Under the pieces are notes generated by a model, which was given only the letters and a program-made list of their open reading frames with translations, did not search any database and was not told the origin of the DNA. Both the position numbers and the translations under genes were made by a program. From the NCBI GenBank assembly GCA_007130695.1, contig SLRZ01000260.1, positions 1-32,951 of the forward strand: a DNA stretch of 32,951 bases. Reading direction: 5' to 3'. Origin of the DNA: Nitriliruptoraceae bacterium (GTDB lineage Bacteria; Actinomycetota; Nitriliruptoria; Nitriliruptorales; Nitriliruptoraceae). This document shows positions 13,319-27,391 of this stretch, one piece after another. The first letter of the stretch is position 1, and the number at the start of each line of letters is the position of its first letter.

Positions 13319-14263
13319 CTAGTCAAGTCTGGCCGGGTCGATCAGGTACGGGTCGGTGGCCTCGATACCGATGTGGCCGGGAGCAGGCCGCGGACTGAGC
13401 CCCCCGCACTCGTCGTGGTCCGCGTGGGACGCGTACGCCGGCAGAGTGGCCGGGTGGGGGCGACACAGCGGTGGGTCCGCCATGGCCGAGAGAGCACCCT
13501 GCAGAGCAGCGTGGTCGCTGGTCTCGAGCGCGAGGCCCCAGTTGAGAAGCGTCGCGCCAGGCGGGAGCGGGTGCCCGCCCCGCCAGCGATCCAGTTGCTC
13601 TCCGAAGCTGACGAACCCGTGGGTGATGGACAGGTCGGCACCCATTTCGTCCTCGACCCGCAGCACCGCCTCCTGCATCGCGGTGCGAAGATTGCGGGTG
13701 TCGGCGCTGCCACAGCTGACAAGGCCAGAAGAATCGGGTGGGTCGAGGCCCGCGTCCTCAGCGACGGCCTGGGCCTCTGCGAGGGTCAGACAACCCGGTG
13801 ACGGGGCGCCGTGCAAGGTCAACTCCACGACCGCAGCGGCCTCGGCTCGACCACGGGTGTCCGCCATCTCCTCGTCGATCGACGGTTCCCCGATGCCCCC
13901 CGCGGTGCGGGTGGTGACCCTCACGACGACGGTTCGGCGATCGACCGACACCACACTGAACTCATCCAGCTCGCTGTCGTTGGCTTCGGCATACTGCTCC
14001 GCACGCTGCCTGGCGGGCCCGGCGATGTCGCCGGCCACCGCGCCGGATGCGAGGTAGGCGATCCCGCCGGGGCCTTCGAGTGCGTCGGCGAGCGCGTCTG
14101 CGCCCGCCAGTGCGGCCGCGTCGGCGGCCGTGACCGCGGTGGCCCGAAGCTCAGTGAGGCGGCCGCCCTGCGTCAGGGCGACCGCCGTGATCATGAGTCC
14201 GACGATGGCGATGAGTACCAGTGGCAGCGCCTGGCCGGCCTCGTCCTGCCATCGACCAGGCAT
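13319..14263 (-). CDS. TadG-like pilus assembly protein
   Basis: MPGRWQDEAGQALPLVLIAIVGLMITAVALTQGGRLTELRATAVTAADAAALAGADALADAL: N-terminal TadE/TadG-like hydrophobic segment and DAAALAGA motif. Confidence 0.8.
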   Translation of the reverse strand: MPGRWQDEAGQALPLVLIAIVGLMITAVALTQGGRLTELRATAVTAADAAALAGADALADALEGPGGIAYLASGAVAGDIAGPARQRAEQYAEANDSELDEFSVVSVDRRTVVVRVTTRTAGGIGEPSIDEEMADTRGRAEAAAVVELTLHGAPSPGCLTLAEAQAVAEDAGLDPPDSSGLVSCGSADTRNLRTAMQEAVLRVEDEMGADLSITHGFVSFGEQLDRWRGGHPLPPGATLLNWGLALETSDHAALQGALSAMADPPLCRPHPATLPAYASHADHDECGGLSPRPAPGHIGIEATDPYLIDPARLD

Positions 14264-14268
14264 CTGGG

Positions 14269-14523
14269 TCAGCTCACCACCAACTCGCGCACCTGGTCGA
14301 AGGCGGCAACGACCGCATCCCGGATCGCCCCGCCGATGTCGTCGCCGAAGTTGATCACGATTCCGATGACGGCGGCGATCAGCACGATCACGGCCACGTA
14401 CTCGGCGGTCGCCTGGCCGTCCTCGTCCCGGTCGGCGTCGGCCAGCGTCGTCACCAGACGGTTGCGCAGCGCGACGTAGCTGCGGAGGCTCGCGGTGTCC
14501 AGCTGCTCGGCGAGGTGCTTCAT
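14269..14523 (-). CDS. flp: Flp-type pilin
   Basis: 84 aa; DRDEDG|QATAEYVAVIVLIAAVIGIVINFGDDIGGAIRDAV: canonical Flp leader G|XXXXEY. Confidence 0.88.
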   Translation of the reverse strand: MKHLAEQLDTASLRSYVALRNRLVTTLADADRDEDGQATAEYVAVIVLIAAVIGIVINFGDDIGGAIRDAVVAAFDQVRELVVS

Positions 14524-14709: not shown

Positions 14710-15345
14710 TCACGACGGGCCCTCCTCAGCGAGCCCCAACCACACGGCGACGGCCTGCGCCCGCTGGTCGACGGCGAGTTTCGCGTAGATGTGGTTGATG
14801 TGGTTCTTGACGGTCTTGTCCGACACGAAGAGCCGCTCGGCGATCTCGCCATTGGACAGACCCCGGGCAACCAGGTCCATGACTTCGCGCTCGCGCTCGG
14901 TCAGGCCGTGGCGGTCGTCCGCGCGGCTCGGTGCGCTGCGCAGTGCCTCGAAGACCGCGGGCGTCGCCTGCTGCGAGAGCAGCGAGCCCCCGCAATGCAC
15001 GGTGCGGATCGCTTGCCCGAGGTCGATGGGGTCGAAGGTTCCGTGGACGAGATAGCCCGACGCGCCCGCCCGGATCGCGCTGGTGACGATGTCGGGATCG
15101 TCGGAGTAGGTGAGCATGAGGATCCGGGTGTCGGCCGAAAGCCTGCTTGCCGCCGAGACACCGTCCAGCACCGGCATGCGCACATCCAGTAGCACCACGT
15201 CCGGTCGCAGGACTCTTGCGCGATCGATGGCTTCCTGCCCGGTCGCAGCTTCACCCACGACCTCGACGTCGTCGATGGTGAGCAGGAGTGCGCGCAGTCC
15301 GCCTCGAATGACGGGGTTGTCGTCGGCGAGGAGCACACGGATCAC
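14710..15345 (-). CDS. NarL/LuxR-family response regulator
   Basis: MIRVLLADDNPVIRGGLRALL receiver; C-terminal LTEREREVMDLVARGLSNGEIAERLFVSDKTVKNHINHIYAKL HTH. Confidence 0.96.
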   Translation of the reverse strand: MIRVLLADDNPVIRGGLRALLLTIDDVEVVGEAATGQEAIDRARVLRPDVVLLDVRMPVLDGVSAASRLSADTRILMLTYSDDPDIVTSAIRAGASGYLVHGTFDPIDLGQAIRTVHCGGSLLSQQATPAVFEALRSAPSRADDRHGLTEREREVMDLVARGLSNGEIAERLFVSDKTVKNHINHIYAKLAVDQRAQAVAVWLGLAEEGPS

Positions 15346-16529
15346 GCGGGCACCTCCTCGACGTCGTGACCGGGACAGCGCAGTTCCAGGTGTGTGCCCT
15401 GGCCGGGGGCGGAACGCAGCGTCAGTTCACCGCCGAGGAGTTGCGCCCGTTCCCGCAGGCCGACCAGGCCGTGATGGCCTTCCCGTCCGAACACGGTGAG
15501 GTCCGCTGGTAGCTCGAAGCCCTCCCCGTCATCGCGGACGTGCAGCCGGATCCCGCTGCACCCCAGTTCCAGCTCCACCTCGACGCGTTGCGCGCGGGCG
15601 TGGCGCGAGACGTTGCACAGCGCTTCGCGCAGGATCTGCAGCAACTCGTGGCGAGCACGCGGTGCGAGCTCTCCGTCGCCGACGACGTGCAGCGCCGTCT
15701 CCAGGCCCTCGGTCTCGCCGACCAGCGCGAGCTCTTCGCGGACGACCTCGTGCAGTGAGCGTCGCGGGTCGTCGGCCCGCAGATCGCTCAGTAGCGCCCG
15801 GGTTTCGGAAGCAGCGATCTCGGCGGCGTGACGGATCCGGACGGCTTCGTGACGCGCGCGCTCGGGGTCGCTGCGGGTGAGGGCGTCGAGGCTCACCGCC
15901 GAGAGCACGATCCCGTGGAGGGTCTTCGCAACCGAGTCGTGCATCTCGCGAGCGAGACGGGCACGTTCTTCGGCAGTGACCGCTCGAACGAGGCCGCTCC
16001 GTGCGGCGCGTAGCGCGACGTCGCGGTCGATGAGCAGCCGGCGCAGTTCGGCGCCCAGCAGCGCTCCGCCCGGCAGCAGCGCCGGGACGACCAAAGTGGC
16101 CGCCACGGGTGCGCCGGGCAGGTACACGGTGGCCGCCATCCCGTAGCCGGCGAGCAGGAGGATGGCGAGCACGACACCACCGGCGCGTGCGTAGAGGATG
16201 CCGGCGAGCACGGCCGTGGTGACCACGTACAGGGTGAACGGCGTGTCGACGCCGGCCGTGCCGAGGACGATGACGGAGACGGCGAGATCGAGTGCCATCG
16301 CACTGGGGTGGCGAAGCACCCAGTCACCGATGCGTGTCCACAGCAGCAGCGGCAGCACCGAGGTGCCGGCCATGAGCACGACCACGCCGAGTGCATCGAG
16401 CGTGCTCGGCGCGGCGGCCAGCGACACCAGCAGCAGCACGACCACCCGGACGTTGAGCAGCAGCCGTACCAGGGGTGCGAGCACTGTGGCCGCGTGTCGG
16501 TCCGGAGCGGGGAGGGCCAGCCCGGTCAT
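15342..16529 (-). CDS. Membrane sensor histidine kinase (HisKA_3 type)
   Basis: N-terminal TM segments; H-box LAREMHDSVAKTLHGI; HATPase region LLQILREALCNVSRHARAQRVEVEL...VRDDGEGFELP; 4-bp overlap with the RR gene. Confidence 0.95.
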   Translation of the reverse strand: MTGLALPAPDRHAATVLAPLVRLLLNVRVVVLLLVSLAAAPSTLDALGVVVLMAGTSVLPLLLWTRIGDWVLRHPSAMALDLAVSVIVLGTAGVDTPFTLYVVTTAVLAGILYARAGGVVLAILLLAGYGMAATVYLPGAPVAATLVVPALLPGGALLGAELRRLLIDRDVALRAARSGLVRAVTAEERARLAREMHDSVAKTLHGIVLSAVSLDALTRSDPERARHEAVRIRHAAEIAASETRALLSDLRADDPRRSLHEVVREELALVGETEGLETALHVVGDGELAPRARHELLQILREALCNVSRHARAQRVEVELELGCSGIRLHVRDDGEGFELPADLTVFGREGHHGLVGLRERAQLLGGELTLRSAPGQGTHLELRCPGHDVEEVPA

Positions 16530-17401
16530 GGCACGATCTCTGGCTGGCCGGTTGCGGCCAGCATCGCCGCAACGATCATGATGATGGAGGCGGGGACGAG
16601 CGTGAAGGCCACGATCAGGCTCACCCGCGGGACGGCCTGCGCCGCCTTCCGCCGTGCGCGCTGGTTCCACTGCTCTCGTAGATCGTCGGCCATCGACCGG
16701 AGGGTGTCGCTCAGGGGGGCGCCCAACTCCTCGGCCTGGCGCAGCGCGACCACGAAGGAGTCGAGGACCTCCGACTCGTTACGGGTCCGCAGCGCTTCGA
16801 AGGCCTCCCGGCGCGACATGCCGAACGACATCTGCCGCAACGCGGTCTCCACCTCCTCGGCGAGTGGGCCCTCGAAGGCATCAGCGATCCGCCGCAGCGC
16901 GGACTGGAAGCCGAGGCCGGCCTCGACGGTCACCGACAGCACGTCGAGGAAGTCGGGGAGGTCCCGCTCGAGGCGGTCCTGGCGACGACGCACGGCCGCA
17001 CGAAGCCACAGATCCTGCAGGAGCCCACCGGTGACGGCCACCAGCAGACCCGTGACCGTTTGCCCGATCAGCAGGAGCAGGAGCCCGGCGCCGCCCAACG
17101 AGAGCGCGTAGGCCGTGCGGCGGGCAAGGAACGATTCCGCGGTGAGACCCTCCGGGCTTCCGGCCGCCTCGAGCCGTCGCTGATAGCGACGGAAGCTCGC
17201 ATCGGGCACCATCGAACGTGTCAGAGGCAGCAGGGAGACCGCGAACCGGTCCACCAGGGACCGGCGCGGCTTGGGCGCCTCCTCGCGGACCCTGGCCGTC
17301 GGCTCGAAGCGCTCCCAGGCCACGGGAGAGCGAAGCAAGCGCACGCCGGCGCCAGCTGTGGCCAGACAGGCCAGCAGCGCGACGACCAGGACGGGCACCA
17401 C
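16526..17401 (-). CDS. tadC: Type II secretion F-family protein, TadC-like
   Basis: RDLPDFLDVLSVTVEAGLGFQSALRRIADAFEGPLAEEVETALRQMSFGMSRREAFEALRTR...LRSMADDLREQWNQRARRKAAQ. Confidence 0.9.
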   Translation of the reverse strand: MVPVLVVALLACLATAGAGVRLLRSPVAWERFEPTARVREEAPKPRRSLVDRFAVSLLPLTRSMVPDASFRRYQRRLEAAGSPEGLTAESFLARRTAYALSLGGAGLLLLLIGQTVTGLLVAVTGGLLQDLWLRAAVRRRQDRLERDLPDFLDVLSVTVEAGLGFQSALRRIADAFEGPLAEEVETALRQMSFGMSRREAFEALRTRNESEVLDSFVVALRQAEELGAPLSDTLRSMADDLREQWNQRARRKAAQAVPRVSLIVAFTLVPASIIMIVAAMLAATGQPEIVP

Positions 17402-17410
17402 GATTCGCTC

Positions 17411-18337
17411 CTAGATGTCGATGGTCTGATGACGACGGATGAGTACGACACCGACTGCGTACAGCCCGACCGCGACGGTCGTCGCCACGATGCCCATTGC
17501 GCTGGACAGGATCGTGTCCAGGGCGCCGGGGGTGATGGCGTTCATGAGCAGGACGGCGCCGACGCCAAGCCCCATGACCACATAGCCGGTGTAGACCGCG
17601 CCAGCCATCAGGGAGCGAAGTTCGCTGCGAAGGTCCTTTCGCTGATCCAGCGTGCGGGCCATTTCACGGAGCGCCTGCACGAGGTCACCGCCGGCACGCT
17701 GCTGGATGAGCAGCGTGGTCACCATCACCTCGACCTCGCGGCTGGGTAGTCGCTGGGAGAGGTTCTGCAGGGCGCGGTCAAGCGACTGCCCGATCCGCAG
17801 CTCTTCGGCGACGGCCGCAAGTTCAGTGCCAGCCGGGTCCTCGAGTTCGCGTGCCGCCAGGCGCATCGCTGAAGGCAGTGACCGGCCTGCGGACGCGGCA
17901 TTGGAGATCGTGCGCGCGAGTTCGGGAAGTTGCGTGACGAACTCGTCCCGGCGGCGCTGTCGCTGACGTTCGAGCTGGAAGCGGACCAGTCTCCAGGCGC
18001 CGTAAGCACCGAGCGGCGCCAACCAGGTGGGCACGAAGCGGTCGAGGACGACGAAGCCGAGCACGACGGCGGAGACCACGATGGTCATGGCGGCCAGCAC
18101 GCTGAGGGGCAGCCCGACAGCTCGCAACTCCGACGCGACCCGCTCACCGAGTCGGGTACGGCGCAGCGCGGCGTCGATCCGGTAGCGAAGCGTCGACGCA
18201 CGAGCCTCGACTCGGGTCAGCGCTGAGCGGCGGATCAGCGCGCGGCGCTCTTCGAAGTCGATCCACACCTGGCGCACGCCAAGACCGGCCACCCCGAGCA
18301 CCAGGAGGCACAACAGCATGATGACGGCCGGACTCAC
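17411..18337 (-). CDS. tadB: Type II secretion F-family protein, TadB-like
   Basis: TQLPELARTISNAASAGRSLPSAMRLAARELEDPAGTELAAVAEELRIGQSLDRALQNLSQRLPSREVEVMVTTLLIQQRAGGDLVQALREMARTLDQR. Confidence 0.92.
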   Translation of the reverse strand: MSPAVIMLLCLLVLGVAGLGVRQVWIDFEERRALIRRSALTRVEARASTLRYRIDAALRRTRLGERVASELRAVGLPLSVLAAMTIVVSAVVLGFVVLDRFVPTWLAPLGAYGAWRLVRFQLERQRQRRRDEFVTQLPELARTISNAASAGRSLPSAMRLAARELEDPAGTELAAVAEELRIGQSLDRALQNLSQRLPSREVEVMVTTLLIQQRAGGDLVQALREMARTLDQRKDLRSELRSLMAGAVYTGYVVMGLGVGAVLLMNAITPGALDTILSSAMGIVATTVAVGLYAVGVVLIRRHQTIDI

Positions 18338-19692
18338 GGGCGCATGTCCTCCACGACGGTGACGTGCTCCTCGGGGTCGAGTGAGACGTCAAAGGCCTCG
18401 GGAAGATCCACACCGGCGCGCGCGAGCCGGTCTCGGACCGGGGCAGGCAGCCCGTAGTGGATGAACCTCCCGGTGACGGTGCGGTCCGGGCGGCCACGGT
18501 CGGGCACGTATTCGGCAATCGTTGCGAGCTTGATCTGCTCCCAGTGCTCGGAGACGGTGGCCGAAATCTCGGCGACCTTCCGGGAACCGTCGGGGAAGCG
18601 TTCGAGATGGACGAGAACCTCGACGGCGCCGTTGATCTGGTCGCGCAGTGCTTCGAAGCTCATGTTCAGATCGGTCATCGACGCGAGCGTCTCGAGCCGC
18701 ATGACGGCATGCCGAACCGAGTTCGCGTGCACGGTCACCAGCGAACCTTCGTGGCCGGTGTTCATCGCCTGGAGCATGTCGACGGTCTCTTCGCCGCGGA
18801 CCTCACCGACGATGATGCGGTCGGGGCGCATGCGCAGGCTGTTGCGTACCAGCTCTCTGATGGTGACCTCGCCCTTGCCCTCCACGTTCTCCGGCCGGGC
18901 TTCGAGCGCCACCACGTGGGGCTGCTGCAGCTGGAGCTCCGCGGCGTCCTCGATGGTGACGATCCGCTCGTCTTCGGGAATCGAGCTCGACAGGGCGTTG
19001 AGGAAGGTGGTCTTCCCGGTGCCGGTTCCCCCGGAGACGACGATGTTGAGCCGCGCGCGCACCAGTGCGTCGAGCAGTTCGACCATCGCCTCGGAAACCG
19101 TCCCGTTGTCGATCAGCTCCGACAGGTCGAATGGACGCGGGAAGCGACGGATGGTGATCGAGGGACCCTTGAGTGCCAGCGGGGGGATGATGACGTTGAC
19201 GCGCTCTCCGGTGGGCAGCCGCGCGTCGACCATGGGGCTGGACTCGTCGACACGCCGGTTGACCCCGGCCACGATCCGCTCGATCGTCTGGTAAAGCTGT
19301 GCCTCCGAGGTGAAGCGCCGATCCTCCACCCGAGTGAGGCGCCCACTTCGCTCGACCCAGATGTCGTCGATCCCATTGACCATGATCTCGGTGACCTCAT
19401 CGTCGGCGAGCAGCGGCTCGAGGACGCCGAGACCGAGCATCTCGTCGACGACGGACCGGATCAGGCTGCTGCGCTCCTCACTGGTGATCACCGGCCCTTC
19501 GCGGGTCAACAGGCTCCCGGCGATCCGCTCGAGGCGGATCCGGAGCTGGTGCGCGTCCAACTGTGAGAGCTGGGCGAGGTCGGCTTCCTCGAGCAGTTGA
19601 CGTCGGAACTGGGCCACCGCGTCGGGCGCCGCCTCGCTCTCCACATCCGAGAGGCGGCTACCCCGCTCCTGTCGACGGGACTTGAGGCTCAC
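18334..19692 (-). CDS. cpaF: CpaF/TadA-type secretion ATPase
   Basis: Walker A VSGGTGTGKTTFLNAL; RPDRIIVGEVRGEETVDMLQAMNTGHEGSLVTVHANS. Confidence 0.97.
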   Translation of the reverse strand: MSLKSRRQERGSRLSDVESEAAPDAVAQFRRQLLEEADLAQLSQLDAHQLRIRLERIAGSLLTREGPVITSEERSSLIRSVVDEMLGLGVLEPLLADDEVTEIMVNGIDDIWVERSGRLTRVEDRRFTSEAQLYQTIERIVAGVNRRVDESSPMVDARLPTGERVNVIIPPLALKGPSITIRRFPRPFDLSELIDNGTVSEAMVELLDALVRARLNIVVSGGTGTGKTTFLNALSSSIPEDERIVTIEDAAELQLQQPHVVALEARPENVEGKGEVTIRELVRNSLRMRPDRIIVGEVRGEETVDMLQAMNTGHEGSLVTVHANSVRHAVMRLETLASMTDLNMSFEALRDQINGAVEVLVHLERFPDGSRKVAEISATVSEHWEQIKLATIAEYVPDRGRPDRTVTGRFIHYGLPAPVRDRLARAGVDLPEAFDVSLDPEEHVTVVEDMRP

Positions 19693-20066
19693 GAGGACTC
19701 CTCACTCGATGCGCGCTGGGGAATCGTGGCACTGCGCTCGACGGTCCATTCCGGCAACGAAACGGCTCCGAGGACGCTTGGCACCGTCAGAGTGACGGTG
19801 ACCCGCTCGCTCTCGACCACCACCGGCCCCAAGCGCGCAACCTCCGCCGAGGAGAGGGAATGGGTAGCTGCCGCGTGCGGGTCACCGCCGTCGCGCATCG
19901 CACGGCTGGCGTTGCGTGCGGCGTTCTCCGACGCGACCGCAGTCGAGACGAACAGCTGCATCTGCACCGCAACCAGTGCGGCGATTACCAAGACCGGCAG
20001 GATGGCGACGATCTCGACCAAGGCCGATCCCTCGTCGCGATCCCACCACCTGTGTCGTCCGCTCAT
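19689..20066 (-). CDS. TadE-like pseudopilin
   Basis: DRDEGSALVEIVAILPVLVIAALVAVQMQLFVSTAVASENAARNASRAM. Confidence 0.85.
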   Translation of the reverse strand: MSGRHRWWDRDEGSALVEIVAILPVLVIAALVAVQMQLFVSTAVASENAARNASRAMRDGGDPHAAATHSLSSAEVARLGPVVVESERVTVTLTVPSVLGAVSLPEWTVERSATIPQRASSEESS

Positions 20067-21649
20067 GGCTCCCGAGCCTCCTCGAGCACGGCCCCGGAGC
20101 GCGACTCCATGGTGCCCACGGTGTTGAAGCCAGGCATCAGTACCGGAATCCCGACCTCGACCTGCACCCAGTCGCCGCCCTGACGAATCTCGACCGTCGA
20201 GCGCCAGCCTTCGGGTAGACGGTGGATGACGGCAGTGCCGACGTCGTCATAGACACCGTCGCCGGTGGCGTCGACCTGCTCGGAGACCGCCAGTTGGCGG
20301 GCACCCTCCCGTGCCGCGTTCTGCACCATCACCTGGGTCCAGCCGGCGAGGGCCAACTGCCACATGAGGAGCAGAGCCATCATGAGCAGCGGCAACGCCG
20401 CGATGAAGTCCACAGCCGCTTGACCACGCTCGCCGTCGAGCACCCGGGCCTCGAGCGACGTCGCCTCCGGCGCCGGCGTGGCGCTCGTCTCGGCGTCGCC
20501 GGTCAACCCGAGTTCGTCGATGAGGTCATCCACGGCGCGCAGGACCGGCCCCTGCACGCGCAGGGGCTGGCCGGTATTCGCGCCCACCTCGAGGTCGCGG
20601 AAGCGGGCAGGCACGGTGGTCTGCAGCAGTGGCGCCTTGACGACGCGCCCGCAGAGGTCCGGTTGGATCTCGGTGTCGCGGTCGACACGGTTGACGAGTG
20701 CCCGCACGTTGTCGCGGGGGATGGCGACGCGCTCCCACATGGCGAGGAGCCGGTTGGCCCCGCGCAGCGAGGGCACATCGGTCTGGGTGACGACGATCGG
20801 GGCGTCCGCCATCTCGGCGACTGTTGCCGTGGCTTCGGTCATCACCGAGCCCAGGTCGACCACCACGACGTCGAAACGGGCGCGCAACCGTGCCAGTACC
20901 CGGCGCACCACAAGCCCGTCCACATCCTCGGCCAGCTCCCCCTCGACGGGCGGCAGCAGCACCTGGAACCCATCGGCGTGGGGGAAGAGCGCTTCGTCGA
21001 GATGACGGGTGCTGAGCTCATCGACCACGGCGGTGAGGTCGAGGATCGAGCGACGGTGGCTGATGTCGAGCAGCGAACGCACGTCTCCGGACTGCAGATC
21101 GAGGTCGACCAGGCAGACCGCGCGGTCGGGCCTGGCGGCGGCGAGGCGTTCCGCGAGGAGCACGGACAACGTCGTGGTTCCCACGCCGCCCTTGGCCCCA
21201 GCGAGGCAGACGACCTTGCCGAACCTGCGGCTTCGCCCGGCGCCGTCGTCACCAAGCCGGTCACGGACCGCCGTGGCCCACTCTCCCGCCGAAGCCACGG
21301 CGCCGGTGAGATCCTCGACTCCCAGAGGCAGCGTCACGACCCCGCGGACGCCGGAGAACATGGCCGAGCGCATCAGCTCCGGCGTATTCTCCTCGGCGAT
21401 CAGCACCAACCCGACGTCGGGGTGGCGGCGGTTGAGTTCGGCGCCGAGCTCGAGGACGGGCACGGGGCCGAGGTGCTCGTGGAGGACCACGATGTCGATG
21501 TGGGCCTCTGAGATCGCTGCGGTCACCTCACTGCTGGTGCCTGCGACCTCGACGGCGACGACCCCGTCGGTTCCCTCGAGCACTGCGCGCGCCTGCTCGA
21601 TGACCTCGTGCTCGCTGGGCGGAATGGCAAGCAGGATCCGGTGGCTCAT
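20063..21649 (-). CDS. CpaE/TadZ-type MinD-like ATPase fused to a C-terminal TadE-like pseudopilin
   Basis: N-terminal receiver-like region; KVVCLAGAKGGVGTTTLSVLLAERL deviant Walker A; FDVVVVDLGSVM; then RG|QAAVDFIAALPLLMMALLLMWQLALAGWTQVMVQNAAREGAR in the same frame (Q codon at 20420-20422). Confidence 0.92.
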   Translation of the reverse strand: MSHRILLAIPPSEHEVIEQARAVLEGTDGVVAVEVAGTSSEVTAAISEAHIDIVVLHEHLGPVPVLELGAELNRRHPDVGLVLIAEENTPELMRSAMFSGVRGVVTLPLGVEDLTGAVASAGEWATAVRDRLGDDGAGRSRRFGKVVCLAGAKGGVGTTTLSVLLAERLAAARPDRAVCLVDLDLQSGDVRSLLDISHRRSILDLTAVVDELSTRHLDEALFPHADGFQVLLPPVEGELAEDVDGLVVRRVLARLRARFDVVVVDLGSVMTEATATVAEMADAPIVVTQTDVPSLRGANRLLAMWERVAIPRDNVRALVNRVDRDTEIQPDLCGRVVKAPLLQTTVPARFRDLEVGANTGQPLRVQGPVLRAVDDLIDELGLTGDAETSATPAPEATSLEARVLDGERGQAAVDFIAALPLLMMALLLMWQLALAGWTQVMVQNAAREGARQLAVSEQVDATGDGVYDDVGTAVIHRLPEGWRSTVEIRQGGDWVQVEVGIPVLMPGFNTVGTMESRSGAVLEEAREP

Positions 21650-22347
21650 CGCAGGCCCTCCTCGAGCACGTACCGACGGCGGGCATCGGGGATGTCCTCG
21701 GTGTCGGCGGCGGTACGCAGACCGAGTCGGACTTCGCTGGCGAAGCTCTCCGCATAGGCGAGCACCAGCGCATCGTCAGCGTTCAGCGCAAAGGTGACGG
21801 GCACGGCCGTGTTGCTCGCGAACCCGGCGTCCGGATCGGCTTGTTCGACAGCGGGAGCGATGTCCACGATCCGCACTGCCTGCAGGACCAGCTCCGAACG
21901 GGGCGGCTCATCGCCCTGTCCCGCAAATGTCGCGTAGACGTCGACGACATCGCCAGCTTGGATCTTGCCGCCGACCCCGGTCTCTGGGCTGACCAGGATC
22001 GCGAACTCGCGTTCCCGCGGGGCGATCTCTGGCGGCTCGGTCAGTACACCCCGCTGGATGACGGTGCCTGCTGGCAGGTCGCTGGCTGCCACGAGCGTCC
22101 CGAGGTCGTCGGCGGCGCCAAGCGCACCGTCTGGGGCCCACCGCTGGGGGATCTCGACCTCCTCGAGATCCCGGGGCCGGATCGGCTCGTAGCGGTCGAG
22201 GTCACGATCCAGCTGCAGCACGGTCTGCATCGGACCCAGCTGCGACTGGACATCGGAGACGTAGCTGACGACAGCCCCGAGGACGGCGAGCGCCCCGACG
22301 ATGGACGCGGCCAGCAGCAGGGCGCCGCGGCGCTGGCGAGGGTTCAC
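21646..22347 (-). CDS. cpaB: CpaB/RcpC-type pilus assembly protein
   Basis: GTG start at 22347 (VNPRQRRGALLLAASIVGALAVLGAVVSYVSD); SAF-like YEPIRPRDLEEVEIPQRWAPDG...LVAASDLPAGTVIQRGVL...AILVSPETGVGGKIQAGDVVDVYATFAG. Confidence 0.88.
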   Translation of the reverse strand: MNPRQRRGALLLAASIVGALAVLGAVVSYVSDVQSQLGPMQTVLQLDRDLDRYEPIRPRDLEEVEIPQRWAPDGALGAADDLGTLVAASDLPAGTVIQRGVLTEPPEIAPREREFAILVSPETGVGGKIQAGDVVDVYATFAGQGDEPPRSELVLQAVRIVDIAPAVEQADPDAGFASNTAVPVTFALNADDALVLAYAESFASEVRLGLRTAADTEDIPDARRRYVLEEGLR

Positions 22348-23285
22348 GAGAAGGTTTCCTTGGGAGAGAGATGGCCACAGAACACACAGGGCTCGGTAGG
22401 GGTCGCACGACTGCACCACCGACAGTTGTGCAGCGTCGGCAACTCCGCGACCAGGGCCCGGCACGCGGCCGCGGAGGGGTACAGCACGACCTCGACGTAC
22501 CGGTCAGTGCCCCACCAGTCGACTGCCGCCGGCGAAGCGGGCACCGTCTGGGGCTTCGGCCACCCTGCGGACGTCAGCGCGCGCTCCACGGTGGCGACAT
22601 CGCCTCGCTCGCCGCGGGCCAGCACGGCTTCCCAATCCCCGTTGTGCGGTGGCAGGGACAGTTGCGGGTCCCGTCGGTCCGCGGCTGCGACCGACGCTTG
22701 CTGGGCGCTGAGCGACACCGCGAACGCGGAGCCAGGCAGCAGCGACCGCGTGTGCAGTCGCATCGGAACCTCGACGTGGGCCAGGCGGGTCACCGTCTCC
22801 AACCAGGCGACGGTGCGTACGCACTCGAGAAGTCGATCGAGGATCACCACCGAGTGCGCAGCACCTTCCTGCGCCACGAGGCGTGCGAGCAGCCCGGCCG
22901 CCGTCATCAATGCGAGCGGGGGAAGGTCAACCGGCAGAATCACCAGGTCGAGGGTCTCCCGGGAGGAGCGAACGACCCGCAGGGCATCCACCACGGCTTG
23001 ATCTCCCCAAGAGGGGTGGAGAGCGAGGACGACCTCCCCCGCGTCGAGGGGCGTTCCGAGCACGTCATGGAGCTCGACCACATCCGCAGTTCCGCGCAGG
23101 AACTCCTCGTTCTGGCTCGGCGGAGTGGCGCCCACCGGGTCCAGCCCAGCCAGCAGCACGTGCGCGGTCCGTCCGGCGGGGTTCGACGCCGACGTGGCTG
23201 CTGGCGTCGAGGGGCGCGGCCCGGTTGGAGGAGGCCCGTGGGCATGCCAAGTCCACGGGAGTGCGGCCCCGTCCCCTGATGACAT
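22344..23285 (-). CDS. Uncharacterised protein heading the tad operon, C-terminal CxxC-x8-CxxC zinc-ribbon-like motif
   Basis: ATG with GGGGGG upstream; 313 aa; C-terminus LHNCRWCSRATPTEPCVFCGHLSPKETFS; GTGA overlap with cpaB. Confidence 0.75.
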   Translation of the reverse strand: MSSGDGAALPWTWHAHGPPPTGPRPSTPAATSASNPAGRTAHVLLAGLDPVGATPPSQNEEFLRGTADVVELHDVLGTPLDAGEVVLALHPSWGDQAVVDALRVVRSSRETLDLVILPVDLPPLALMTAAGLLARLVAQEGAAHSVVILDRLLECVRTVAWLETVTRLAHVEVPMRLHTRSLLPGSAFAVSLSAQQASVAAADRRDPQLSLPPHNGDWEAVLARGERGDVATVERALTSAGWPKPQTVPASPAAVDWWGTDRYVEVVLYPSAAACRALVAELPTLHNCRWCSRATPTEPCVFCGHLSPKETFS

Positions 23286-23924: not shown

Positions 23925-25082
23925 TCACGCGGCGCGGTACAGCGGCAGCGCCAGCGTGTAGAGGAGCCGCTCGAGCTGCAGCTCCGGGTTGCCGTTGCGG
24001 TCGAGTGCCTCCCGGCACCGCACGACCGCCTGCAGTCCGACCACCGCGTCGGCCGCCGGTAGCCGATCGGCATCGCGACGCAGGGCGGCCTCGTGGTCGA
24101 GGTTCACCAGCTCAGCGCCCCCGGCCCCCGCCTGGACCGCCAGCAGGTCGCGGAGATAGCTGGCCAGGTCGTCGAGCAGCAGGTCGAGGCAGCGGCGCTG
24201 CTCCTGGCGCTCGAGCCGTTCGAAGCGGCGGGTCAGACGCGCCTTGACGCCGGGCGGCCACCCCTGGCTGCCCTCGACCCCGAAGGCCTCGCCGAGTTGG
24301 CGCAGTTCCTCGGCATTTCGTTCCTTGACGGGGGCCACCCGCGAGCGCGCCCACTGGACCCGCTCCTTCGCTGCGGGGATCACCTCGCCCGGCCCTCCCG
24401 TGGCCAGCCGGTCCAGTAACGAGAGGTGGTCCCAGCGGGCCTTGGCGATGTCGGGGTCGGCGAGGTCGGCCAGCCGCTCCGGCGAGCCGAGCGCGGCGCG
24501 GACCATCGCCGGACGCTGTTCCTCGGGGACCCCCAGCGTCGCCGCGCGGCCGGTCAGTTCCGCGGGGCCCCACGGCACGAAGTCCAGTCGCCGGCAGCGG
24601 CTGACCACGGTCTCCAGCAGCGCACCCTCGTCCTCGACGTCCAGAACCCACACCACCGAGGGTGGCGGCTCCTCCAGGATCTTCAGGAAGGCGTTCTGGG
24701 CGGCCTCGTTCATGCGTTCGGCCGCGCTGATGCGCAGCACCCGGCGGCGCCCCTCGGTCAGCGTCCGGGTCGCCAGCGGCATCCACTCCTCCCGGACATC
24801 GTCGACGAGATAGTTGGCGCCCTTGGGTTCCAGATCGGCGACCGCCGGGTGGGCGCCGCGGGAGATGCGCCGGCAGGTCGAGCAGGTTCCACACCCCTGG
24901 TCCGTGGTGGTCTCCGGACAGTTCAACGCGGCGGCGAACGCCCGGGTCGCCTCCTGCTGCCCCACCCCCCGTGGCCCCACCAGCAGCCAGGCGTGCGCGA
25001 CCTCGTCCGCGACCAGCGCGGTACGAAGGGTCTGCACGGCCGCGGGCTGACCGAGCACCTCGTCCCAGGTGGCAGCCGTCAT
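23925..25082 (-). CDS. holB: DNA polymerase III subunit delta'
   Basis: WDEVLGQPAAVQTLRTALVADEVAHAWLLVGPRGVGQQEATRAFAAALNC...GCGTCSTCRRISRGAHPAVADLEP...RVLRISAAERMNEAAQNAFLKILEEPP. Confidence 0.95.
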   Translation of the reverse strand: MTAATWDEVLGQPAAVQTLRTALVADEVAHAWLLVGPRGVGQQEATRAFAAALNCPETTTDQGCGTCSTCRRISRGAHPAVADLEPKGANYLVDDVREEWMPLATRTLTEGRRRVLRISAAERMNEAAQNAFLKILEEPPPSVVWVLDVEDEGALLETVVSRCRRLDFVPWGPAELTGRAATLGVPEEQRPAMVRAALGSPERLADLADPDIAKARWDHLSLLDRLATGGPGEVIPAAKERVQWARSRVAPVKERNAEELRQLGEAFGVEGSQGWPPGVKARLTRRFERLERQEQRRCLDLLLDDLASYLRDLLAVQAGAGGAELVNLDHEAALRRDADRLPAADAVVGLQAVVRCREALDRNGNPELQLERLLYTLALPLYRAA

Positions 25083-27391
25083 CGCCGCTCCCGCCCCGGG
25101 TCATTCGCGGGCTCGGAGGCCAGTTCGGTGGTGGGCGCGTCGTCGGTCGTGGAAGCGTGTCGGGTGGTGGGGTCGTCCTGCCCGGGGTCCGGGTTGGCGT
25201 CCCGACCGACCACGTCTCCGCGCAACTCCTCGGTCCGTGGCAGTCTCGGGGCCGGGACGTCGTCCCGGACGGGTGCGCCCACGGGGACCCCGCCGGCCGC
25301 GGCGCTGCCCGCTTCGCCGGGCCCGTCCGACTCCGGCTGTCCGTCCGGGGACAGGCCCAGCAGCGGCAGCACGACCTGGCGGACCTGCTGCTGGATCTCC
25401 TCCACGGGCTCGGTGGCGTCGATGACGAGGTAACGGTCGGGGTCGCGCCCGGCGAGGTGCCGGAATGCGTCGTTGACCTGCTCGTGGAACGCGATCCCCG
25501 CCGCTTCCAGGCGGTCGCCCTGCCCCTCGAGCCGGTCCAGGCCGACACGTGCGTCGACGTCGAGCAGCACCACCAGGTCGGGTCGAAGGTGGCCGGTCGC
25601 CCACCGGTTGAGCTCCGCGACCTGCGCCGCACCGAGCCCGCGCGCCACGCCCTGGTAGACCACCGAGGAGTCCACGTACCGGTCGCAGAGGACCACCCTG
25701 CCCGACTCGAGGGCCGGGGCGATCACCTCCTCGACGTGCTGGGCCCGGTCGGCCGCGTACAGCAATGCCTCGGCACGGTCGCTGAAGACCTCTTCGCGGG
25801 CGGCAAGGAGCACCTCACGAAGGTTCTCCCCGAGCCCGGTCCCGCCCGGCTCCCTCGTGACCAGTACGTCGTGGCCGGCGCGCTCGACCGCGGCCTGCAG
25901 GAGCCGGATCTGGGTCGACTTGCCCGCCCCGTCGCCACCTTCGAAGACGATCAGGCGACCCCGCCGGCGTTCCACGGCACTGGCGGTCACACCGAGGTCC
26001 AGCTCCTCCGAGGCGTCGAGCGACTGTCGCAGCCACCGCCCGGCCAGCACGGCTCCGGTCAGTGCGAGCAGCCCGGCGAACACCAGCGTCAGGCGCACCC
26101 CGCCGAGCTGGTACGGGTAGATACCGACGGTGCCGGCGGGCGGCTCCTCGATGCGCTGCTCGATCCCGAGGATCCCCACCAGCAGCGGTGCGGCGACCGT
26201 GGCCCCGAGGATCGCGACCCGCACCCCACTGTGGAACGCCGCGAAGGTGCGACCGCGCAGGGAGTCGATGGTGCGTTCCTGCAGCACCGTGTAGCCCACG
26301 ATGAACGAGATCCCGGCACCCATCCCCATCACCGCACCGGTGAGGCAGGCGAGGTCGAGTCGTGGCATCAGCGCCGTGGCGACCAGGCCGACCCCGGCCA
26401 GGCCGATCCCCGGCGCGAACAGACGCTCCTTGTCGATCCGTGCGGTGAGCGGCCCGGTCAGCACCAGGCCGACCAGTAGCCCGCCGCCCACCGCCGCCAC
26501 GAGCATCCCGAAGCCGGACGGGCCGGCGTTGAGGATGCGGGCGAACAGTTCGCCGAGCGACATCACCACGCCGGCCGCCACGAACGCGATCATCACCCCG
26601 ACGATCAGCGCCCGGATGATCGGGTGGGAGGCCACGAAGGCCAGCCCCTCCTTGAGCTGGGCCCACGCTCCCGCCGGTTCCGCCGGTTCGAGGGTGGGAC
26701 GCTGCGGGTCGACCGGGATGACCAGGCGCGCCAGCAGCGGTGCGGAGATCAGGAACGACGCGGCGTTGAACCAGATCGGCAGGGCGATCGGCCGGTCGGC
26801 GAAGAAGCTTCCCTCCGGGGCGACCGAGAGCGCGAACCCCACCATCGCCGCGTACAGCACCCCGCCCAATGGCAGCGTCCCGTAGGTGACGATGAGGTTC
26901 ACCTGGTTGGCGGCGACCAACTGGTCACGGCGGACGAGGCGGGGAAACACCGCGTCCTTCGCCGGCGCGAACAACGCCGAGAGCACCTCGATCATCAGCG
27001 TCGCGAGCAGCAGCGTCAGCAGCTCGTTGGTGAACGGGATCAGCGCCATCACGATCCCGCGCCCGATGTCGGCACCGATCAGCACCCGCTTGCGGTTCCA
27101 CCGGTCGACGAACACACCGGCAATGGGCCCGAGCAGCATCGCCGGGATCACGCGCGCCGCCATGACCGCGCCCAGGGCGAAGGGGGCCGCGCGGGTCGGG
27201 CCCATGATCTCGACCGTCAGCGCCAGGATCGCCAGGACGCCGATCCAGTCACCCAGCGCGGACGTCACGGTGGCCAGCGACAGGTTGCGGAAATCCCGGT
27301 TCTTCAGCAGCGCCTTGTAGTCCGCCGCGGAGACCCCGCCGGACACCGTGTCGGCCCCGCGTTCGGGGCTCGGTGGAGAACCGTCACTCAT
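25079..27391 (-). CDS. tmk: Fusion of an MFS transporter-like domain and thymidylate (dTMP) kinase
   Basis: N-terminal MFS (LLKNRDFRNLSLATVTSALGDWIGVLAILALTVEI...GPIAGVFVDRWNRKRVLIGADIGRG), then RGRLIVFEGGDGAGKSTQIRLL, LVTREPGGTGLGENLR, VLCDRYVDSSVVYQGVARGLG in the same frame. Confidence 0.95.
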   Translation of the reverse strand: MSDGSPPSPERGADTVSGGVSAADYKALLKNRDFRNLSLATVTSALGDWIGVLAILALTVEIMGPTRAAPFALGAVMAARVIPAMLLGPIAGVFVDRWNRKRVLIGADIGRGIVMALIPFTNELLTLLLATLMIEVLSALFAPAKDAVFPRLVRRDQLVAANQVNLIVTYGTLPLGGVLYAAMVGFALSVAPEGSFFADRPIALPIWFNAASFLISAPLLARLVIPVDPQRPTLEPAEPAGAWAQLKEGLAFVASHPIIRALIVGVMIAFVAAGVVMSLGELFARILNAGPSGFGMLVAAVGGGLLVGLVLTGPLTARIDKERLFAPGIGLAGVGLVATALMPRLDLACLTGAVMGMGAGISFIVGYTVLQERTIDSLRGRTFAAFHSGVRVAILGATVAAPLLVGILGIEQRIEEPPAGTVGIYPYQLGGVRLTLVFAGLLALTGAVLAGRWLRQSLDASEELDLGVTASAVERRRGRLIVFEGGDGAGKSTQIRLLQAAVERAGHDVLVTREPGGTGLGENLREVLLAAREEVFSDRAEALLYAADRAQHVEEVIAPALESGRVVLCDRYVDSSVVYQGVARGLGAAQVAELNRWATGHLRPDLVVLLDVDARVGLDRLEGQGDRLEAAGIAFHEQVNDAFRHLAGRDPDRYLVIDATEPVEEIQQQVRQVVLPLLGLSPDGQPESDGPGEAGSAAAGGVPVGAPVRDDVPAPRLPRTEELRGDVVGRDANPDPGQDDPTTRHASTTDDAPTTELASEPANDPGRERR

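What the first reader, a model, noticed from the sequence alone, without database searches (positions are those of the whole stretch)
20063..21649. CpaE/TadZ ATPase fused to a TadE pseudopilin: an ATPase as a prepilin 'leader'
One ORF carries a complete CpaE/TadZ-type ATPase (KGGVGTTT deviant Walker A) and, after a ~30-residue linker (TGDAETSATPAPEATSLEARVLDGERG), a TadE-like segment with a type IVb processing-like site RG|QAAVDFIAALPLLMMALLLM. Position 5 is D rather than E. Prepilin leaders stay in the cytoplasm, so cleavage at G|Q would release a ~409-residue ATPase and a ~119-residue pseudopilin in fixed 1:1 ratio. If it is not cleaved, the localisation ATPase would be tethered to the membrane platform. 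A stand-alone TadE gene follows immediately. The fusion is seen directly; cleavage is inference.
Basis: partly seen in the sequence, partly recalled or inferred. Interest (0 to 1): 0.75.

Follow-up and report, generated by a model that had tools for sequence, protein, structure and literature searches.

The report
Pilus ATPase doubling as pseudopilin leader
In many actinomycete bacteria a minor pilus subunit is made as the tail end of a pilus-positioning ATPase, joined by a perfectly conserved cut site, so the whole ATPase probably serves as an enormous leader that is cut off; this appears undescribed and can be tested directly.

Summary
ORF 20063..21649 (-) is one 528-aa frame: a TadZ/CpaE protein (REC-like domain plus deviant Walker A MinD/ParA ATPase), a disordered linker, then a TadE pseudopilin whose processing site is ERG|QAAVDF. 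It is neither an assembly error nor a one-off. In 96 distinct orthologous loci (Nitriliruptoria, Thermoleophilia, many Actinomycetes) 74 are fused, 21 are split and one is cut by a contig end, at the same operon place (znr-cpaB-cpaE~tadE-tadE2-tadA-tadB-tadC). Fusion is inferred to be ancestral. Splits are nested in Streptomyces plus one Actinomadura and mostly have strong ribosome-binding sites; most fused genes have no usable internal start. G(-1) is invariant in the fused proteins, in an otherwise unconserved linker, and +5 is always E or D. Every tested genome of the clade that is at least 90% complete and at most 5% contaminated has a prepilin peptidase; the window's own 89.75%-complete MAG shows none. 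Best reading: a prepilin with a 409-aa leader, cut after G409 into free CpaE and a 119-aa pseudopilin. Cleavage is inferred, not shown. No description of the fusion was found in the open literature searched. Rated a new variant of a known kind.

The parts
20063..21649 (-). cpaE~tadE fusion gene, 528 aa; 4-nt overlaps with cpaB upstream and tadE2 downstream
   Evidence: conserved in 73 other distinct loci
20510..21649 (-). CpaE/TadZ part, residues 1-380: REC-like domain (1-133) and MinD/ParA-like ATPase (145-380)
   Evidence: Pfam PF13614; AlphaFold2 pLDDT above 90 in most of it; Foldseek 3ea0 and 3fkq, E. rectale two-domain protein
21170..21193 (-). deviant Walker A motif KGGVGTTT (residues 153-160)
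   Evidence: sequence; K153 G154 G155 G157 invariant in 35 sequences
20423..20509 (-). linker, residues 381-409, disordered, ending in ERG|
   Evidence: pLDDT below 50 at 387-402 and 404-408; variable in length and sequence in relatives
20423..20425 (-). codon of G409, position -1 of the inferred prepilin peptidase site
   Evidence: invariant in the fused proteins; G in 94 of 95 fused and split sequences
20066..20422 (-). TadE pseudopilin part, residues 410-528 (inferred mature chain, 119 aa)
   Evidence: PF07811; long helix 399-456 followed by an alpha/beta head
20441..20443 (-). possible internal GTG start (codon 403), GAGG at 20449-20452; would give a 7-aa leader
   Evidence: duplex energy -5.9 kcal/mol; not conserved among relatives
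19689..20066 (-). stand-alone second TadE-like pseudopilin (DEG|SALVEI)
18334..19692 (-). tadA/cpaF assembly ATPase
   Evidence: PF00437, TIGR03819 just under cut-off
16526..18337 (-). tadB and tadC platform genes (17411..18337 and 16526..17401)
   Evidence: PF00482 in both
14710..16670 (-). histidine kinase (15342..16670) and response regulator (14710..15345) embedded in the operon
   Evidence: ORFs; same order in many relatives
14269..14523 (-). flp pilin candidate (EDG|QATAEYV)
   Evidence: sequence; weak PF16982 match, below cut-off
13319..14263 (-). tadG-like gene
   Evidence: PF13400
21646..22464 (-). cpaB/rcpC (a GTG near 22347 is a likelier start)
   Evidence: TIGR03177 over cut-off
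22344..23285 (-). conserved uncharacterised gene with a C-terminal CxxC...CxxC element, first gene of the conserved block (called znr here)
   Evidence: no Pfam or NCBIfam family; next to cpaB in most relatives

Best explanation
The gene encodes a prepseudopilin whose leader peptide is a complete TadZ/CpaE ATPase. SHOWN: both domains lie in one frame, in the same operon place in most members of an actinobacterial TadZ clade, with an invariant Gly at -1, Glu or Asp at +5 and a flexible linker before it. INFERRED: the ribosome makes the ATPase first; the hydrophobic N-terminal helix of TadE then acts as an internal signal anchor, leaving the ATPase in the cytoplasm and the TadE head outside. A PilD-type GxGD prepilin peptidase cuts after G409. 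This yields CpaE of 409 aa (linker as tail) and a 119-aa mature pseudopilin, equal in amount and delivered to the same membrane spot. Before the cut, CpaE is tethered beside the platform, so the fusion could seed the CpaE ring around the CpaF motor together with the minor pilins that prime the filament. After the cut TadE is free to join the priming or tip complex.
For: Domains in one ORF. 74 of 96 distinct loci fused. Clade monophyletic with all deep branches fused; splits nested, about 5 changes, 2-3 forced by starred branches. G409 is the only invariant column in the TadE half of 35 fused sequences; by alignment not guided by the motif G(-1) occurs in 94 of 95 and E or D(+5) in 95 of 95, while linker entropy is about 3 bits and linker length runs from 18 to 188 aa. 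Leader mostly basic, median net charge +4. Start codon with SD of -5 or better at short-leader distance in 10 of 73 fused against 17 of 20 split; 36 of 73 fused have no start codon there. Split orthologues encode free CpaE plus short-leader TadE, the products that cleavage would give. Peptidase present in 10 of 10 tested genomes of the clade that are at least 90% complete and at most 5% contaminated, with a cysteine-rich N-terminal element and GMGMGDVK motif. Junction predicted disordered. Prepilin leaders stay cytoplasmic and vary in length (review PMC10191384).
Against: No cleavage data. No prepilin peptidase found in the window's own MAG, 89.75% complete, nor in two still less complete relatives. 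A folded ~400-aa leader is, as far as I know, without precedent for a prepilin peptidase. The window's linker is acidic (net -2), as in its family, which weakens the positive-inside argument there. G and E could be kept partly because they are typical of TadE sequences in general.
Confidence: 0.68

Rival explanations
1. The fusion is not cut, or only a fraction is: the TadE helix replaces a membrane-targeting helix and permanently tethers the CpaE ring around the motor, TadE acting as a membrane anchor and not as a filament subunit.
For: CpaE of Caulobacter is modelled as six dimers ringing CpaF and held at the membrane by a C-terminal amphipathic helix (PMC13170226); no amphipathic segment was found in nearly all linkers here (present in 3 of 74); own MAG lacks a detectable peptidase.
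Against: G(-1) is invariant in the fused proteins although cleavage would be dispensable; splits without a covalent tether occurred several times, and those CpaE tails gained no amphipathic helix either.
Confidence: 0.18
2. Internal translation initiation makes a normal short-leader TadE from the same gene (in the window from GTG 20443 with GAGG upstream), so the fused chain is only part of the output.
For: GTG codon 403 with SD energy -5.9 would give leader MLDGERG; 10 of 73 fused genes have such a site.
Against: 36 of 73 fused genes have no ATG, GTG or TTG at that distance; SD strength is far weaker than in split genes (median 0 against -9.7, p 4e-7); the site is not shared with the closest relative L007.
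Confidence: 0.1
3. Artefact: assembly or sequencing error, or loss of a stop codon in one genome, of no biological consequence.
For: The window is from a 288-contig MAG.
Against: Same architecture in 73 other distinct loci, isolates included, with conserved synteny.
Confidence: 0.01

Closest known systems
TadZ/CpaE of Tad (type IVc) pili, e.g. Eubacterium rectale TadZ (PDB 3fkq) and Caulobacter CpaE
   Same: REC-like plus deviant Walker A ATPase domains, tad-type operon, fold match
   Different: Known TadZ/CpaE proteins end after the ATPase or an amphipathic helix; here a pseudopilin follows in the same chain
TadE/TadF pseudopilins (PF07811), processed by TadV in Aggregatibacter (PMC4322843 citing Tomich 2006)
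   Same: G|xxxxE-type site, hydrophobic N-terminal helix, Tad operon
   Different: Leader of about 400 residues that is a folded enzyme, instead of a short peptide
Modular type IV pilins such as Streptococcus sanguinis PilB (PMC8179133; review PMC10191384)
   Same: An unrelated domain is joined to a pilin module
   Different: Those domains sit on the extracellular side; here the extra module is on the cytoplasmic, cleaved side
PilM-PilN fusion of Clostridioides difficile type IVa pili (PMC6916266)
   Same: A cytoplasmic assembly protein fused to a membrane-embedded partner of the machine
   Different: PilN is not a pilin and has no prepilin peptidase site (general knowledge)
Split cpaE + tadE pair of some Streptomyces (e.g. 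L019, L053, L060)
   Same: Orthologous domains, same operon place, same G|QVxVEF site
   Different: A stop codon in the linker region and a separate start with strong SD

Membership tests
TadZ/CpaE | MinD/ParA-type ATPase with deviant Walker A (KGGxGxxT) | tested here: met
   KGGVGTTT, residues 153-160; PF13614 45.8 bits; K153, G154, G155, G157 invariant
TadZ/CpaE | N-terminal receiver-like domain | tested here: met
   Response_reg PF00072 at 14-118, E 1.8e-5 though below gathering score; alternating beta/alpha fold in the model; 3fkq aligned over 398 columns
TadZ/CpaE | encoded in a tad operon with tadA, tadB, tadC | tested here: met
TadZ/CpaE | localises at the assembly site and recruits Tad components | not testable with these tools
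   needs microscopy
TadE pseudopilin | PF07811 over its cut-off | tested here: met
   37.7 bits, cut-off 22.9; NCBIfam TadE_Rv3655c only 24.6 of 40 bits
TadE pseudopilin | prepilin site: G at -1, acidic residue at +5, hydrophobic helix | tested here: met
   G409, D414 (E in 68 of the 73 fused proteins scored), helix 399-456
TadE pseudopilin | short, mostly basic leader | tested here: not met
   leader is 409 residues; last 20 residues net -2
TadE pseudopilin | actually cleaved by a prepilin peptidase | not testable with these tools
   peptidase gene present in well-assembled genomes of the clade, none found in own MAG
Gene-fusion artefact | relatives show the two parts apart, or a frameshift at the junction | tested here: not met
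   74 fused of 96 distinct loci

The most novel reading that the evidence does not exclude
The uncut fusion is a working intermediate: a ring of CpaE subunits, each carrying a TadE anchor, assembles around the motor and platform, and prepilin peptidase cleavage then releases the ATPase ring and arms the minor-pilin priming complex. Processing would then be an assembly checkpoint, not mere maturation, with a folded ATPase as the leader.
Probability: 0.2. Interest if true: 0.85.

Novelty: new variant of a known kind. Interest (0 to 1): 0.62.

Why it matters
If the fusion is cut, a prepilin peptidase accepts a ~400-residue folded enzyme as leader, far beyond the leaders of known prepilins, and the cell makes a positioning ATPase and a minor pilin in strict 1:1 ratio. 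If it is not cut, it is a direct covalent link between TadZ and the pilin complex. Either way the conserved fusion is genetic evidence that TadZ/CpaE and the TadE minor pilin act at the same place, which bears on a question left open in a review (PMC6916266): what holds the Tad assembly complex together in monoderm bacteria. It also means that searches for pilin signals near protein N-termini would be expected to miss these pilins; a survey notes actinobacterial Tad systems that lack identifiable minor pilins (PMC6668835). Culturable fused species (Streptomyces, Cellulomonas, Actinomadura, Kineosporia, Solirubrobacter) make it directly testable.

Tried and rejected
Frameshift or assembly artefact: rejected by the census. 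Internal start as the general source of TadE: rejected as a conserved mechanism, kept as a minor possibility for the window. The '1 TGA' flags looked like split genes but are only the normal stop at the end of the match. That split genes lie in the same frame as recent fission products: 11 of 21 in frame against about 7 expected, not telling. Own-genome peptidase search with a relative's protein found nothing. Amphipathic-helix test of linkers and tails did not separate the models. Flp family PF16982 search rang nowhere, not even in controls, so it says nothing. Plasmid search gave only partial ATPase matches, at most 71% of the query.

Full report
Observation. The ORF 20063..21649 on the minus strand is 528 aa without interruption. 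Pfam places AAA_31 at residues 145-308 and TadE (PF07811) at 409-451, both over their cut-offs. The sequence at the junction is ...SLEARVLDGERG|QAAVDFIAALPLLMM. The gene's stop overlaps the start of the next TadE-like gene by four bases, and its own start overlaps cpaB in the same way, so the operon looks translationally coupled.

Not an artefact, and common. A search of 151 related genomes gave 12 further full-length relatives with both domains in one frame. ORF and HMM classification of all loci gave 96 distinct members of this TadZ clade: 74 fused, 21 split, 1 cut by a contig end. In a sample of 397 genomes of the phylum I count about 21 with this clade, 13 of them fused, while 127 have some CpaE-like match at E up to 1e-30; a clear score gap (365 against 184 bits) separates the clade from other CpaE proteins.

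Evolution. In a tree of the ATPase part alone the fused state fills all deep branches (Nitriliruptoria, Thermoleophilia, Actinomadura, Cellulomonas, Nesterenkonia, Kineosporia and others), and the 21 splits lie within Streptomyces (20) and Actinomadura (1), needing about five changes, of which starred branches force two or three. With other CpaE proteins as outgroup the clade is monophyletic (100). The simplest reading is one old fusion followed by several fissions; the trees are quick ones with long branches, so the exact count is soft. Gene order cpaB-cpaE(~tadE)-tadA-tadB-tadC, mostly with znr before it and often with HK and RR after it, is conserved in both states. The tails of split CpaE proteins resemble fused linkers (e.g. 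DRGALALRRR in split L088 and fused L137), as expected if the stop arose inside the linker.

Is the junction a processing site? By alignment not guided by the motif, of fused and split sequences together, G(-1) occurs in 94 of 95 (exception: the split L076) and the +5 residue is E in 90 and D in 5. In 35 fused sequences G409 is the only invariant column of the TadE half. The linker itself is variable: entropy near 3 bits per column, length 18 to 188 aa. Between close relatives linkers differ by whole codons, with a nonsynonymous to synonymous codon ratio of 1.25 against 0.34 in the ATPase: the linker looks like a relaxed but translated spacer. Such conservation of one Gly is what a prepilin peptidase site demands.

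How would TadE be made otherwise? Split genes restart with strong Shine-Dalgarno sites (17 of 20 at -5 kcal/mol or better at short-leader distance). Among 73 fused genes only 10 have such a site and 36 have no start codon there at all (Mann-Whitney p 4e-7). The window has one candidate (GTG, -5.9), not shared by its nearest relative. So in most species TadE can come only from the long chain.

Peptidase. PF01478 was found once in each of the 10 tested genomes of the clade that are at least 90% complete and at most 5% contaminated, nine fused and one split, G087. It lies away from the operon, as reported for actinobacteria (PMC4322843). The proteins show a cysteine-rich N-terminal element and GMGMGDVK. 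The window's own MAG (89.75% complete) gave none by family or by protein search; with about 10% missing this is inconclusive but should be said.

Structure. AlphaFold2 (35 sequences, mean pLDDT 89) gives a REC-like domain, a MinD/ParA-like ATPase, a low-confidence stretch 387-408 (pLDDT mostly under 50) and a long helix 399-456 with a small alpha/beta head. Foldseek finds ParA-family 3ea0 and the E. rectale two-domain protein 3fkq, which I take to be the TadZ structure cited in PMC6668835.

Mechanism. The best account is cleavage after G409 into CpaE and a mature pseudopilin, with a transient tether that would deliver both to the same spot. Shown: architecture, conservation, lack of alternative starts in most members, low-confidence (probably disordered) junction, peptidase gene in complete genomes. 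Inferred: topology, cleavage, order of events. The permanent-tether model remains possible, especially given the CpaE ring around CpaF proposed for Caulobacter (PMC13170226), but it does not explain why Gly is invariant nor why untethered splits arose repeatedly.

Novelty. None of the nine literature searches, nor the papers read, describes a TadZ-TadE fusion. The library is open-access only, and protein-family databases may list the domain pair without comment. Known parallels are modular pilins with extracellular additions and the PilM-PilN fusion. I rate it a new variant of a known kind.

Noticed in passing
22344..23285 (-): Uncharacterised gene with a C-terminal CxxC...CxxC element, no Pfam or NCBIfam match, found next to cpaB in most of the 80 relatives: a likely unrecognised component of actinobacterial Tad operons.
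   Followed up: partly
25079..27391 (-): One 770-aa ORF joins an MFS-type transporter (TIGR00900, below cut-off) and a dTMP kinase (TIGR00041).
   Followed up: no
14710..16670 (-): A histidine kinase and response regulator lie between tadC and flp, and the same pair follows tadC in many relatives, suggesting dedicated control of the pilus.
   Followed up: partly
L157 (G050:C15:143000-153000): A third CpaE copy in genome G050 has no TadE part; a gene resembling znr lies just upstream.
   Followed up: partly
L089, L106, L107: Some Streptomyces have greatly lengthened Gly/Pro/Ser-rich linkers or tails after CpaE (388 aa in the split L089).
   Followed up: no
L046:2746-4773: Fused protein of 675 aa in a Solirubrobacterales MAG carries a further C-terminal extension after TadE.
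   Followed up: no
L137, L138, L088, L105, L142, L145: A short motif like DRG(A/S)LxLRR recurs in Streptomyces linkers and in the tails of split CpaE proteins.
   Followed up: no
whole genome G000: No prepilin peptidase was found although the window carries a Tad operon; probably MAG incompleteness.
   Followed up: partly
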